Positions 58,116 through 64,000 of a stretch of DNA of 64,000 bases are shown in pieces (position 1 is the first letter of the stretch; every line of letters begins with the position of its first letter). The position numbers and the translations under genes are program-made. This stretch comes from Hyphomicrobiales bacterium (GTDB lineage Bacteria; Pseudomonadota; Alphaproteobacteria; Rhizobiales; Rhodobiaceae), in the NCBI GenBank assembly GCA_002869065.1, contig PKTR01000002.1:434001-498000 (forward strand), read 5' to 3'. The notes under the pieces are model-generated. The model worked only from the letters and a program-made list of their open reading frames with translations. It ran no database searches and was not told where the DNA came from.

Positions 58116-58482
58116 CGATCGATTGACGCGCGCCGGCAAACTCGCGGCTGCAGGGAATGGACTTTTGGAGGGTTTCCGGCACTTCAACTGACGATCGCAA
58201 CGACACGCCAAGGTCGCACCAGGAGGCTAAGCCCGACATGGCGCGCGCGGTTTTGCAGCTTTTTCAGTTCTGATCAGACGAAAGAACGGCCACCGGCGGC
58301 AGTGTGCCGCGCCAGCCGTAACGTGGCAGTGTACAGCGCCGGCCGGAACTCTGTGCCCGGCGCATCACGACAATCTGCCGGGCGCTCGCTTAGTCGACGG
58401 ACAAAAGCGCCCGCCAAGCTTTGCCCGCGTGATCGCGTTGGCGCCAAGCGCTCAGGCAACGGATCTGATTGTGGGGAGAAAA

Positions 58483-58528
58483 TGGTGCCCAGGGGCGGAA
58501 TCGAACCACCGACACGCGGATTTTCAAT
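58483..58528 (-). pseudogene. 3' half of a tRNA-Phe gene (likely attachment-site remnant)
   Basis: On the minus strand the 46 bases begin at the anticodon loop (ATTGAAAATCCGC; GAA anticodon) and run through the variable loop, T arm (GTGGTTCGATTCCGC) and acceptor strand to the encoded CCA (CCTGGGCACCA), then TTTTCTCCCC. Upstream of the anticodon the sequence no longer fits a tRNA: there is no D arm or 5' acceptor. Integrative elements often recombine in the anticodon loop of a tRNA gene and leave such a 3' copy at the far end. The element would lie to the right (higher coordinates). Confidence 0.75.
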
Positions 58529-58841: not shown

Positions 58842-60263
58842 TCATCGAACCTGCCACACGTGAATGACGGGCTTGTTGCTGTCGGCGTGTGGCTCCAACA
58901 CATAGAGATGGTCGCCGACGCGATCGTAGGCGATGGCACCGATGCGCTGCAGCCGCTGGTCGCCTAAGCCGAGTTCGGGCAGATCGCCGGCATTCAGCAG
59001 CAGATTGTCGTCGACCACCAGACGCGCATAGGGCTGCGGCTCGAAGGGCTCAAGCGCGCCGGTCGCGACCTTCGCGAGATCGTTCGGATCGTACAGGATG
59101 AACTGCGCCTCGAAACGATTGGACCACCAGCCGCGCACGCCGTTATGCGCTTTGCATTCCTGATAGTCTTCGCGGGGACAGGGCTGACCGCTGGCCATAC
59201 TGCAAGACCATTCTTCGCCGGACGATCCGGCAAAGACGCACGGGAACTGCGGGCCCTCAAGATTGGCGAAGCCATACCAGAAACGCTCGCCGACACCCTT
59301 TGTCCCGGCGAAAAGCACGGCGGCCTTGCCGGTTGTGGTGGTCAGCCAGGCGCCGCCCTCCCAGGAATCCGGATGCTGATAGCCTTCGAGAATCCGCGCC
59401 GGATCGAACCCCTCTTCCGAGCTTTGGTAATTGAGTAGGGTCGTCGACGCCAATTCCGTTCCCGGCCCCGGGAACACTCCCTCGTCGTCCCACGACCGAT
59501 AGGCGATCAGGCTTGGGCCCATACCCGACCAGCCGCCGTCGCGAAAACGGCCGGTCGCTAGAACGCGACCTTCGGCGAAGCGATCCGCCCAGTCTCTCGG
59601 AATTTCGAACAAATAGTCGTTGACGCTGAAAGTCGAATGGCCGGCGAGCCGCCACGGACCCTGGAAGTTCGGCCGCTCCAGATCCGGGTCGAAGACGCCA
59701 TGGGTGCCTTCGGCGATGTCCGTACCCATGTGCTGGCCGAAGGCGATGTGAACCTTTGGGCCGGTCGCCGGCGTATCGAGATATTCGAGGCCAACGCGCG
59801 GCAATTCACTGTTGCGGGCAAAGCTGGTGCCGGTGACGTTCTGCAGTTGCTGCAGGATCGTCGCTGTTGGCAAATCGTTAAGCTTGCGCGACGCACCGGG
59901 TGCCGGAATGGCAATTTCGGCGATCTGCCTGCCACTCGGCAACTGATAGGGATGCCCGGTAATGAAAAGCGACCCGGGGAAGCCGTCATCGGGACCCTTC
60001 GGGTCGCCCCCGCAGCGATAGGTCAGAGCGTGGGCACCCCAGGCAAAGCTGTTGTCCTCGTCCTCGTCGAGGGGCAGCCGGAAGGCACCGAGATAATGGA
60101 AATCATCGACCGAAACCGTTCGCGCCCCGATCTCCGGCTCCGTCGGCCGCGCGCGATCCTGTGCCAACGCACGCGCCGGTGACGTGGCGACGATTGTTGT
60201 CGCCAGAAGCAGCGCTCCGACGGTTAGAACTTCAGAAGCTGGAATCGCTGAACGCCTCGCCAT
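58842..60263 (-). CDS. secreted protein of unknown function
   Basis: 473 residues. A signal peptide or anchor spans about residues 10-35 (VLTVGALLLATTIVATSPARALA|Q). The body is rich in Gly, Trp and aromatic turns with spaced strands (FHYLGAFRLPLD, GSLFITGHPYQLPSGRQIAEIAIP, LFEIPRDWADRFAEGRVLATGRFRDGGWSGMGPSLIAYRSW, LAKVATGALEPFEPQPYARLVVDDNL, IGAIAYDRVGDHLYVLEPHAD...IHVWQVR), suggesting a beta-propeller. Cys occur at YRCGGD, FPCVF, WSCSM, QPCPRED and QECKA. I do not recognise a named family. The last of three adjacent leftward genes for exported proteins, right of the tRNA-Phe remnant. Confidence 0.65.
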   Translation of the reverse strand: MARRSAIPASEVLTVGALLLATTIVATSPARALAQDRARPTEPEIGARTVSVDDFHYLGAFRLPLDEDEDNSFAWGAHALTYRCGGDPKGPDDGFPGSLFITGHPYQLPSGRQIAEIAIPAPGASRKLNDLPTATILQQLQNVTGTSFARNSELPRVGLEYLDTPATGPKVHIAFGQHMGTDIAEGTHGVFDPDLERPNFQGPWRLAGHSTFSVNDYLFEIPRDWADRFAEGRVLATGRFRDGGWSGMGPSLIAYRSWDDEGVFPGPGTELASTTLLNYQSSEEGFDPARILEGYQHPDSWEGGAWLTTTTGKAAVLFAGTKGVGERFWYGFANLEGPQFPCVFAGSSGEEWSCSMASGQPCPREDYQECKAHNGVRGWWSNRFEAQFILYDPNDLAKVATGALEPFEPQPYARLVVDDNLLLNAGDLPELGLGDQRLQRIGAIAYDRVGDHLYVLEPHADSNKPVIHVWQVR

Positions 60264-60311
60264 GACGCTATCTCCTCGAGCACGACCGATCGGAAGGACG
60301 GCACCTGCCGG

Positions 60312-60722
60312 TCAACCGCACGGTCTCGCGGTGACACGGCAGTAAATCTCACCCGGTCGCTTCGGACGGCATTCGATGCGTTTGTTGCGGGCCTTGCTCC
60401 AATGGGAATAGCGCTCGCCATACTGGCTCCGCACCTTCTCCTCCCAGTCGCGGATGGCGAAGGTGCGGGCATTGGTCTCATTGTTCATGGTGGCGGCCTC
60501 GGTGACGTCCGACTTGCAGACGAACGCCCTGAACGGCTGCTGCGGCTGCCAGGGCCTGACCCGCGGGTCAGTAACCGGAATGATGCCGCCATCGTCCGAC
60601 TGAAACTGGACCGGACCGACTTGCCAAGAAGAGAGCGAGCCAGCGAATGTTTCATTTCCCGGGAAACTGGCGAGCGCGAGTGCAAGCAATCCGCCAAAAC
60701 CAAGTTTGGCCATCGTTTTCAT
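60312..60722 (-). CDS. small secreted protein of unknown function
   Basis: 136 residues from ATG 60722 (GGAGGTCTGCG before it). Signal peptide (MKTMAKLGFGGLLALALASFPGNETFA|G). The mature part contains FVCKSDVTEAATMNNETNARTFAIRDWEEKVRSQYGERYSHWSKARNKRIECRP and ends YCRVTARPCG; four Cys could pair. The Trp/Arg-rich 'FAIRDWEEKVRSQYGxxYxxWxxAxxKxxxC' pattern recurs in small rhizobial exported proteins, but no function is known to me. It lies 65 bp after the large gene and 48 bp before the next. Confidence 0.7.
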   Translation of the reverse strand: MKTMAKLGFGGLLALALASFPGNETFAGSLSSWQVGPVQFQSDDGGIIPVTDPRVRPWQPQQPFRAFVCKSDVTEAATMNNETNARTFAIRDWEEKVRSQYGERYSHWSKARNKRIECRPKRPGEIYCRVTARPCG

Positions 60723-60787
60723 CGCAGACCTCCGGTTTTTCCTGGCTGGCGCTTCTGAGGCTTGGAGGTTGCCAGACGAATGCATGA

Positions 60788-63700
60788 CTACTTGATGCAT
60801 TTCCGGGCAACCCTGTTCCACTTCAGTCCCTTCGGACAGCCACAGAAGAAGGCGTTCCGCTGTTTCGGAACCGGCTTGGCGATACGGCCGCCGTCGCAGA
60901 CGCAACGGTTGCCGACCACCTTGCCGAAGCGACAGGAGATTTCGACAATGCACTGCCGTTTCACCTTGTCCCAAACCTGGCCATCACGGCAGCCGCAGAA
61001 GAAAGCGTTGCGTTTGCCACGGATCGGTTTGGCAATACGGCCGCCGTCGCAGACGCAGCGGTTGCCGACCACCTTGCCGAAGCGACAGGAGATCTCGGCA
61101 ACGCATTGGCGTTTCGCCTTGTCCCAACGCTGGCCGTCGCGGCAGCCACAGAAGAACGCATCACGTTTGCCGGGCACCGGCTTGGCGATACGACCGCCGT
61201 CGCAGACGCAGCGGTTGCCGGCCACCTTGCCGAAGCGGCATGTGATCGTGGCAACGCATTGGCGTTTGCGCGGATCCCATCTCTGGGTGCCCGGGCAACT
61301 GCAGAAGTAGGCGGACTGCCGGTCGGGATCCCGTCGGGCGACCCGCCCGCCGGTGCACAGGCACTGTCCATTTCGCACCGTCCCGCCAACACAGGTGATC
61401 TGCTGGCTGGGTTCGGCGACACACTCGCCCGTTCGTTCATCGACGACGGTACCCGGCGGGCATTCCTCCTGCGACTGGGCCGGCTCGGCAACGCATTCGC
61501 CGGTCTGTTCGTCGATCACCGTCCCGGCAGGACATTCCTCATCGGAAGCGACCGGTTCGGCAACGCATGCGCCGGTCTGCTCGTCGACGACGGTCCCCGC
61601 AGGGCATTCCTCTTCCGGCTCGGCTGACCCGGCGACGCATTCGCCAGTCTGTTCATCGACCACGGTTCCGGCCGGGCATTCCTCTTCCACTTCAGCCGGC
61701 GCGGCGACGCAGTCGCCGGTGTTCTCGTCAATGATGGTCCCCGCAGGGCAATCCTCGACGGCCTGATCAGGTTGGGCCGCTTCCTCGGCGGCATCGTCGA
61801 TGTTTTCCGACACCGCCTCGAATTGCGGTGGCGATCCGCCGCGACGGATACGCGTGCTGATCGTCACGATCCTCGGATCGCCGGTCGGGACGATCTCGAT
61901 GATCCGTTCACTGCCGTCGAAAAGCGCCAGCGTGAACCTGACCTTGCGCTGATCATGGACACCTTCGCGGTCGCGGGCGACGAAGAGAAAGTTCTCCGGC
62001 CAGCTTGTCGTCCATTCGAACAGACGGCCTTCGCCGCTGAACGCGATAGCCGGATGGCCGGGCGGTATTCTGAGTGAGTTTTGGTCCGCATCCCAGGACT
62101 GGAATTCCTCCCACTCCTTCGTTGTGGCGTTGCGCCCGTAGCGGGTGATCCGCGCCTGCGTGACCCGCCGTCCATAGCCCAGACGGGCATCCAACGCGAT
62201 GTTGTCGCAGGCGGTGTTTTCCGGCTCGACGACGAATGTCCGGTTTTCGAAGAACTGCCGATCCGGATCCAGTTCATAGACGCGGTGCCTTGGATCGGCG
62301 CTGCGTTCGCACCGGATCTGGATGCCGTAGGTGTTCGGCGGCGCAATCTCGATGTAACGCGTCGTGGCATCGTCGAAATCGAGCTTGATGCGGGAGCGGA
62401 AGCGCCGGGTCTCGACCAGATCATAGCTGGCACCCAGGTCCCCTGTGCGCCAGTGAGCGACGCTTTGCCGACCGGAATACCCGTTGACCGGCGCCCGCGC
62501 ATCGATTGTACCGGCAGATCTCAGGGTTGCGGGATCGTTCCGCCAATACCCGGTCACCGGATCGTAAGCGAAGTTTTGAAGCTCCGCGCCGGTGACGGTT
62601 GCGGACCCTCCATCCGCATAGAAGACGTTGATTGCGTCGCACGCGGTCGGGCGCGGCTCGGTGATGAACAGGTCTTCAACGCTGGTGTGGAGCGTACGGA
62701 CGGCCCTGCCCCCGACAAGGCATTCGACCCGGACGCCGAAGAACGGCTTTTCGCAACTCGGCGCGATGGTCGTCGGCATCGGGCACAGACGGCGCACATT
62801 TGCGGGATCGATGGCACCTTCAGGACCGACAGCGGCGTCGATCCGCTGATCGAGTTGCCGCGCCCATCCGCCGGGCTCGCAGCCACCGTTCAGATGCTGG
62901 TTCCAGACAATCAGGGCGCGCACATTGCCGAGAAAAGCAGTCTGGCGCCGGCTCAGTTCCGTGAGTTCGGCCGCAGTGGTCGGCGGCGACGGCCCGTCGC
63001 AGGCCGATGTGCCGTTCGACAGGCCCCAGTCGGTCCAGGTCTCGATCTCATCGAGATCTTCGTAAACCCAGAATTTCGGCCTCGGCCCGGAGATCGTCGG
63101 CAATTGTTCCTGAGGATCTCCGGTCTTTCCGGAGCACTGCATCTTGAAGTTGGAGTTGCGGGTCAGGTGCGTGTTCGAGACGATGATCGCTCGCGGAAGG
63201 TCGTCGTTTCCGACGTCGGCATAACCAATGATCGGCATGAAGTGCTGGCCGCCGCGGGACACCATAATCAACGGGATATTGTTGTCGATGAAGCCCTTTA
63301 TGATCATGCGGGCGACGGTGACGTCGTTCTCCGTCTCGACCGAGAACGGCCGTGCGTCGTTACAGCCAACAACAGTGCGCCGGTTCATGTAACCGTACAT
63401 GCCGAGCCGGGCAGTCCAGATGCAAGTGTTGCCGACGCCCGCAACGTTTCCGCAGCCGCCCCTGGAGGCATTGAGCCAGGTTTCGAACTGGTTCGAAGGC
63501 GGCGAGCATTGGCCGTAGCGCGGAATGGGCGTGTTCGCGACGCCATCCTGGAAGTATCCGTCGCAGGTCGCCGTAGCGGTCGACTGGTTGAACAGGTTGC
63601 CGAAGAACACGCCGTCAGCGGCGCTCTGATCGACGGCGCCCTCCCGGCTGCGGTAGGCCTCGTACTCCGCGGCCAAATGTTCAGACGAGCCGAAATAGCC

Positions 63701-64000
63701 GACATCTGTCACGGCACCGCGAAGTTGGTCGGTCATATATCGCAGCGTGGCGTCATAGTGGACGTTCTGCTCGTAGCGGCTGAAATTGAGCTGCTCGGCG
63801 ACCATACCCATCGAGAAGAACATGCACTGCGCGCTGTGCTGACGGTGCCGGCTCTCAAGGATATTCTGGCCGTTGCGCGGCTGAACGATCCAGTGCGGCA
63901 CGCGCTGCAGATAGCCGGCGTCAAGATCGGCGAAGCTGTTGAAGCGTAGCGAGTCCGCCGCTGCGGGTCCCGTCGAAATCAGCAGGCTCGCGAGCACAAT
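60788..64000 (-). CDS. large secreted protein: possible papain/C39-like domain plus two sets of Cys-rich tandem repeats (5' end outside window)
   Basis: At least 1069 residues; the frame is still open at the window edge, where a hydrophobic run (LASLLISTGPAAA|D) looks like the end of a signal peptide. Numbering from the GTG at 63997: Cys58 (SAQCMFF), His252 (SRGGQHFMPIIGYAD) and Asn275 (IIVSNTH) have the order and setting of a papain/C39-like triad. A long middle part with beta-rich, Cys-containing sequence follows. Then come five 24-residue repeats (CPAGTVVDEQTGECVA core) and four 51-residue repeats with eight Cys each (core GNRCVCDGGRIAKP, FFCGCRDGQRWD). Function unknown; the repeats suggest a disulfide-rich extracellular stalk or binding region. 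Confidence 0.7.
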   Translation of the reverse strand: MVLASLLISTGPAAADSLRFNSFADLDAGYLQRVPHWIVQPRNGQNILESRHRQHSAQCMFFSMGMVAEQLNFSRYEQNVHYDATLRYMTDQLRGAVTDVGYFGSSEHLAAEYEAYRSREGAVDQSAADGVFFGNLFNQSTATATCDGYFQDGVANTPIPRYGQCSPPSNQFETWLNASRGGCGNVAGVGNTCIWTARLGMYGYMNRRTVVGCNDARPFSVETENDVTVARMIIKGFIDNNIPLIMVSRGGQHFMPIIGYADVGNDDLPRAIIVSNTHLTRNSNFKMQCSGKTGDPQEQLPTISGPRPKFWVYEDLDEIETWTDWGLSNGTSACDGPSPPTTAAELTELSRRQTAFLGNVRALIVWNQHLNGGCEPGGWARQLDQRIDAAVGPEGAIDPANVRRLCPMPTTIAPSCEKPFFGVRVECLVGGRAVRTLHTSVEDLFITEPRPTACDAINVFYADGGSATVTGAELQNFAYDPVTGYWRNDPATLRSAGTIDARAPVNGYSGRQSVAHWRTGDLGASYDLVETRRFRSRIKLDFDDATTRYIEIAPPNTYGIQIRCERSADPRHRVYELDPDRQFFENRTFVVEPENTACDNIALDARLGYGRRVTQARITRYGRNATTKEWEEFQSWDADQNSLRIPPGHPAIAFSGEGRLFEWTTSWPENFLFVARDREGVHDQRKVRFTLALFDGSERIIEIVPTGDPRIVTISTRIRRGGSPPQFEAVSENIDDAAEEAAQPDQAVEDCPAGTIIDENTGDCVAAPAEVEEECPAGTVVDEQTGECVAGSAEPEEECPAGTVVDEQTGACVAEPVASDEECPAGTVIDEQTGECVAEPAQSQEECPPGTVVDERTGECVAEPSQQITCVGGTVRNGQCLCTGGRVARRDPDRQSAYFCSCPGTQRWDPRKRQCVATITCRFGKVAGNRCVCDGGRIAKPVPGKRDAFFCGCRDGQRWDKAKRQCVAEISCRFGKVVGNRCVCDGGRIAKPIRGKRNAFFCGCRDGQVWDKVKRQCIVEISCRFGKVVGNRCVCDGGRIAKPVPKQRNAFFCGCPKGLKWNRVARKCIK
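60791..61393. repeat. four tandem 153-bp units coding for Cys-rich modules
   Basis: Units at 60791-60934 (short last one), 60935-61087, 61088-61240 and 61241-61393 encode 51-residue modules with the Cys pattern C-x9/10-CxC-x17-CxC-x12/14-C. The three C-terminal units are close in DNA as well as protein; the fourth (N-terminal) is diverged. Confidence 0.9.
61394..61753. repeat. five tandem 72-bp units coding for a CPAGTVVDEQTGECV module
   Basis: The codon for the first Cys recurs at exactly 72-bp steps (61460, 61532, 61604, 61676, 61748). The 15-16 residue core is highly conserved and the eight-residue acidic linker varies. Confidence 0.92.

What the first reader, a model, noticed from the sequence alone, without database searches (positions are those of the whole stretch)
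58842..64000. Three-gene block of exported proteins with a large protease-like, Cys-rich repeat protein beside an integration scar
Three consecutive leftward genes (gaps 65 and 48 bp) all encode proteins with export signals, and none has a function I can name. The largest combines a possible papain/C39-like domain (Cys58, His252, Asn275), a long beta-rich middle and two kinds of tandem Cys-rich repeats. The combination of a candidate peptidase with a modular repeat tail and two small partners could be a secreted effector, adhesin or predation/defence system. The domain call rests on motif pattern only.
Basis: partly seen in the sequence, partly recalled or inferred. Interest (0 to 1): 0.7.

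Follow-up and report, generated by a model that had tools for sequence, protein, structure and literature searches.

The report
Mobile island carrying exported, peptidase-like proteins
Three neighbouring genes for exported proteins, one of them a large orphan protein with a possible papain-like enzyme domain and cysteine-rich repeats, are cargo on a 15.9-kb mobile DNA island inserted at a tRNA gene; they match no known system and their function is not established.

Summary
The three leftward genes exist as described, but the largest runs 264 bp past the window (60788-64264, 1158 codons). They are cargo on a 15,867-bp island at tRNA-Phe: a 50-bp direct repeat at 58479-58528 recurs inside the intact tRNA, and between them lie an integrase, a second tyrosine recombinase and a type I restriction-modification system. 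Gene 1 (473 aa) is not an orphan: it belongs to a widespread exported family (about 75 relatives found in Chloroflexota, Acidobacteriota, Planctomycetota and others, up to 54% identity) with no Pfam name and a confident beta-propeller prediction. Gene 2 ends in a small cysteine-containing exported domain, found in 30 of 150 genomes of the order, also unnamed. Gene 3 is the true orphan: no relative in any sample searched. Its Cys147/His341/Asn364 have papain-like local motifs, and a C39-family profile picks out the His region above all shuffles and non-C39 controls, but Pfam finds nothing and the single-sequence structure prediction failed. The papain-like call is plausible, not shown. The three genes were not seen together elsewhere. 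Most likely: secreted or surface-acting cargo, with gene 3 a papain-like hydrolase carrying a duplicated beta-rich module and Cys-rich repeats. Moderate interest.

The parts
58479..58528 (-). Left attachment site: 50-bp exact copy of the 3' end of tRNA-Phe(gaa); partner at window-equivalent 74346-74395 in the intact tRNA-Phe
   Evidence: exact 50-bp match; tRNA-Phe at L004 18350-18425
58842..60263 (-). Gene 1: exported 473-aa beta-propeller protein of a widespread unnamed family (YLGAFRLP ... GDPxGPxDGFPGS signature)
   Evidence: relatives, alignment; structure, pLDDT 86.6; beta-propeller matches; tree
60312..60722 (-). Gene 2: exported 136-aa protein; C-terminal ~70 aa is a small domain with invariant C69, W93, W108, A111, C118, C128, C135, common in the order
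   Evidence: no usable Pfam/NCBIfam/PDB match
60788..64000 (-). Gene 3 (continues to window-equivalent 64264): 1158-aa export-type orphan protein with possible papain/C39-like domain, duplicated module and two Cys-rich repeat arrays
   Evidence: no relatives
62825..63952 (-). Gene 3 N-terminal region (residues 105-480), candidate papain-like domain: Cys147 at 63824-63826, His341 at 63242-63244, Asn364 at 63173-63175
   Evidence: motif and C39 profile; not confirmed by structure
61895..62794 (-). Gene 3 middle (residues 491-790): two tandem copies of a ~150-aa module sharing ...TACDxI...VTxA...
   Evidence: (Smith-Waterman 69; best of 2000 shuffles 50)
61418..61750 (-). Gene 3 residues 839-949: five 24-aa repeats CPAGTVVDEQTGECV, matching half of the CBM_14 profile
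60794..61393 (-). Gene 3 residues 958-1157: four 51-aa repeats with six Cys each

Best explanation
A cargo cassette of three exported proteins on a tRNA-Phe-integrated mobile element (integrase, second tyrosine recombinase, type I restriction-modification). Shown: the island and its ends, the gene order, the gene 1 family and its predicted propeller fold, the gene 2 domain family, and the gene 3 repeats and internal duplication. Inferred: gene 3 is secreted or held at the cell surface; its N-terminal domain is a papain/C39-like cysteine hydrolase (Cys147-His341-Asn364); its duplicated module and Cys-rich repeats position it on a glycan- or protein-rich surface. Gene 1 probably binds an extracellular glycan or protein through its propeller, and gene 2 is a small disulfide-stabilised envelope protein. 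The set most likely acts on the outside of this cell or of neighbouring cells, as an accessory trait that came with the element.
For: Island: (type I RM, two recombinases); a same-genus genome carries a solitary att copy with a 28%-identical integrase nearby. Gene 3 catalytic pattern: papain-spaced His...Asn motif in 38 of 50,000 shuffles, with the Cys motif in 1 of 50,000; C39 profile 7.4 bits against 6.3 for the best shuffle, third of 807 segments behind two real C39-like proteins. Repeats; CBM_14 profile E 1.4e-12 over the five 24-aa repeats. Gene 1: 38-sequence alignment, pLDDT 86.6, propeller matches; some relatives carry surface or glycan-related modules such as Por_Secre_tail, CHU_C, a GDSL esterase and CBM96.
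Against: No Pfam match in the candidate peptidase region even at E 10; the structure prediction failed. The motif was corrected once after a first version with wrong spacing missed the protein, so its odds are post hoc. Only the His region, not the Cys region, aligned with the C39 profile. The Cys-His distance of 194 residues is much longer than is usual in C39 or papain. The 24-aa repeats match only half of CBM_14 and have two Cys each, not six. The three genes were not found together elsewhere.
Confidence: 0.4

Rival explanations
1. The N-terminal region of gene 3 is not an enzyme: the protein is a purely structural or adhesive secreted protein, and Cys147 pairs in a disulfide like the other N-terminal cysteines.
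For: Nine cysteines lie between residues 147 and 462, enough for a disulfide-rich structural domain; no peptidase profile hit in Pfam; repeats make up the C-terminal third.
Against: The C39 profile and the papain-spaced motif single out the His341-Asn364 region above controls.
Confidence: 0.35
2. The three genes are unrelated cargo genes that happen to be adjacent on the island and do not work together.
For: Gene 1 and gene 2 relatives occur without each other or gene 3 in all fetched neighbourhoods; the gene 1 family is spread over many phyla while gene 2's domain is common in the host order.
Against: Same strand, gaps of 48 and 65 bp, each with its own ribosome-binding site, and all of export type.
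Confidence: 0.4
3. The block is part of a defence system together with the neighbouring type I restriction-modification genes.
For: Same island.
Against: No match of any of the three to PADLOC models; export-type signals; an integrase and a recombinase lie between them and the RM genes.
Confidence: 0.04

Closest known systems
Peptidase_C39_2 / papain-like cysteine peptidases (PF13529; papain superfamily)
   Same: Order Cys, His, Asn; His followed at +6/+7 by Gly-Tyr (HFMPIIGY; papain HAVxxVGY, from memory), then a strand ending in Asn; best profile overlap at IPLIM...GGQHFMPIIGY
   Different: 194 residues between Cys and His; no Pfam-level match; fold not confirmed
CBM_14 (peritrophin-A, PF01607)
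   Same: CPxGTxxDxxTxxC half-motif in five tandem copies, E 1.4e-12 for the array
   Different: Only profile positions 21-46 of 53 match; two Cys per repeat instead of six; no chitin link shown
Generic beta-propellers (WD40, Drp35 lactonase, sialidase, GH130 phosphorylase) for gene 1
   Same: Gene 1's model matches these in Foldseek (E down to 3.6e-4)
   Different: TM-scores below 0.5 and about 10% identity: fold level only, no family assignment
tRNA-integrated genomic islands with tyrosine integrase
   Same: att repeat from the tRNA 3' end, integrase, RM cargo
   Different: Two tyrosine recombinases, both mid-island rather than beside the tRNA

Membership tests
Papain/C39-like cysteine peptidase | Significant match to a curated peptidase profile | tested here: not met
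   Pfam hmmscan of whole protein and fragments, E up to 10, none in that region; PF13529 search of own genome none
Papain/C39-like cysteine peptidase | Cys, His, Asn/Asp in order with family-like local motifs | tested here: met
   motif rare in shuffles, but a post hoc pattern
Papain/C39-like cysteine peptidase | Similarity to family members beyond chance | tested here: inconclusive
   7.4 bits, above shuffles and non-member controls, but only over the His region
Papain/C39-like cysteine peptidase | Papain-like fold with the three residues in contact | tested here: inconclusive
   AlphaFold2 without relatives failed, pLDDT 31
Papain/C39-like cysteine peptidase | Cysteine-dependent hydrolase activity | not testable with these tools
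   needs an assay
CBM_14 chitin-binding domain | Full ~55-aa domain with six conserved cysteines | tested here: not met
   each 24-aa repeat has two Cys; match to profile positions 21-46 of 53 only
Beta-propeller protein (gene 1) | Beta-propeller fold | tested here: met
   confident model, pLDDT 86.6, pTM 0.86; top Foldseek matches are mostly propellers, though with low TM; blade count not determined
tRNA-associated integrative island | Direct repeat of the tRNA 3' end at both ends | tested here: met
tRNA-associated integrative island | Integrase within the element | tested here: met
   Phage_integrase E 1.2e-29
tRNA-associated integrative island | Empty site in a close relative | tested here: inconclusive
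   flanks of tRNA-Phe are not syntenic in the two same-genus genomes
Known anti-phage defence system (genes 1-3) | Match to PADLOC models | tested here: not met

The most novel reading that the evidence does not exclude
Gene 3 founds a new family of large exported papain-like hydrolases with a duplicated beta-rich module and two new kinds of Cys-rich repeats, working on a target that is bound by the gene 1 propeller and the gene 2 protein.
Probability: 0.15. Interest if true: 0.6.

Novelty: new variant of a known kind. Interest (0 to 1): 0.38.

Why it matters
Gene 1 exposes a conserved exported beta-propeller family spread across many phyla that Pfam does not name, and gene 2 a small exported cysteine domain common in this order that is likewise unnamed. 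If gene 3 is an active papain-like enzyme, it is an orphan secreted hydrolase carried by a mobile island, a tractable case of how islands bring in new exported functions.

Tried and rejected
Relatives of gene 3: whole protein, N-terminal region, middle and repeats against up to 398 genomes of the order and 385 of the class, 84,980 species by peptide patterns, viral contigs, plasmids and phages; nothing above noise (one short weak match to the repeats). Long queries score only 2-3 candidates per genome, so absence is not proof. Defence reading: no PADLOC match. Chitin binding: only a half-domain match. A first C39 profile was spoiled by reading minus-strand loci on the wrong strand and is discarded; one search replaces it. 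A first motif pattern had the wrong spacing and was corrected. Empty-site test failed for lack of synteny. A BtrH_N-type protein beside a gene 1 relative in L122 was checked as a possible link to C39-like partners; it is a single case without a visible export signal. Literature searches found nothing on this combination; CBM_14 in Proteobacteria is reported for Ralstonia solanacearum in PMC554113.

Full report
Observation. The three ORFs, their strand and gaps are as described. Fetching the genome to the right shows that gene 3 begins 264 bp beyond the window, at an ATG preceded by AGGGGGG. GC at third positions in this extension (0.66) is coding-like but lower than in the rest of the gene (0.72-0.79), so the start is probable, not certain.

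Island. ARAGORN finds an intact tRNA-Phe(gaa) at L004 18350-18425, i.e. window-equivalent 74350-74425. A 50-bp stretch that includes its 3' end is repeated exactly at 58479-58528. The 15,867-bp interval holds genes 1-3, a tyrosine integrase, an unnamed ORF, an HTH protein, a second tyrosine recombinase and hsdS, hsdM and hsdR. In one same-genus genome (G002) a solitary copy of the att core lies near a 28%-identical integrase, while the intact tRNA-Phe is on another contig, so the site has probably been used by another element there. An empty site could not be shown because flanking genes are not syntenic.

Gene 1. Direct searches with the single sequence found no relative. A degenerate DNA pattern for the motif DPxGPx(D/N)G(F/Y)PG, recalled from memory as a family signature, matched 102 stretches in 84,980 species, of which about 75 encode relatives (26-54% identity). 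Thirty positions are invariant in 38 sequences; those inside the search motif are invariant by selection, the others (for example Y57, E116, W204, W301, D447, H468) are not. No Pfam or PDB sequence match was found for the family. The model is confident and mostly beta (pLDDT 86.6, pTM 0.86), and the closest solved folds are beta-propellers at low TM-score, so only the fold class is assigned. Some relatives carry C-terminal sorting domains or are fused to a GDSL esterase or CBM96, which suggests extracellular, possibly glycan-related roles (inference). The tree places gene 1 in a supported group of ten with Chloroflexota, Atribacterota, an acidobacterium, an actinobacterial MAG and a Chromatiaceae MAG, in line with horizontal spread, though MAG contamination and paralogues limit that reading. 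The pattern scan finds only sequences that hold the motif, so the family is probably larger.

Gene 2. Its C-terminal part matches 30 of 150 genomes of the order. Aligned members are small export-type proteins with invariant C69, W93, W108, A111, C118, C128 and C135 in gene 2 numbering; no library names the domain.

Gene 3. No relative was found in any collection. The N-terminal region has a papain-like pattern: QCMFFS, then GGQHFMPIIGYAD, then AIIVSN. The His motif with papain spacing occurs in 38 of 50,000 shuffles of the region and with a Cys motif in 1 of 50,000; the pattern had been corrected once, so these odds are post hoc. More independent is the profile from 13 C39-like domains found by PF13529 in other genomes: 7.4 bits, against 6.3 for the best of 500 shuffles, and third among 807 segments behind two proteins that are themselves C39-like. 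The aligned part is residues 315-350 only. AlphaFold2 from the single sequence is uninformative. The middle is a tandem duplication: the two halves align with score 69, no shuffle of 2,000 exceeding 50. The five 24-aa repeats resemble half of CBM_14, and the four 51-aa repeats with six cysteines have no convincing match.

Mechanism. The best reading is an exported cargo cassette in which gene 3 is a papain-like hydrolase held near its target by its repeats, with the propeller and the small cysteine protein as exported companions. Only the anatomy is shown; catalysis, target and cooperation are inferred. The rival that gene 3 is structural rather than enzymatic is nearly as likely, and so is the rival that the three genes are merely neighbours (the rivals overlap, so their confidences do not sum to one).

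Verdict. Observation confirmed, interpretation partly supported. The most solid new facts are the two unnamed exported families (genes 1 and 2) and the complete island; the most open question is gene 3.

Noticed in passing
L122 6913-7998 (+): A BtrH_N/DUF4872 protein with a C39-like N-terminus lies 88 bp downstream of a gene 1 relative in a Chloroflexota MAG.
   Followed up: partly
L070 3588-5042 and 6795-7940 (-): Two gene 1 paralogues lie close together in a Chloroflexi MAG; Raymondbacteria loci (L103, L127, L137, L139, L151) also hold several copies in one genome.
   Followed up: no
L086 2644-4839 (-): A gene 1 relative in a Chromatiaceae MAG is fused to a GDSL lipase/acylhydrolase domain.
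   Followed up: partly
L192 8591-9932: A same-genus genome has a solitary copy of the tRNA-Phe att core with a related integrase nearby: the same site seems to host another element.
   Followed up: partly
L024, L025, L027, L032, L035: The gene 2 domain occurs as two tandem copies in several small export-type proteins, and in genomes G010 and G004 within much longer open frames (622-808 aa).
   Followed up: no
window 58298-58349: A 27-bp tandem repeat (1.9 copies) lies about 130 bp left of the attachment site.
   Followed up: no
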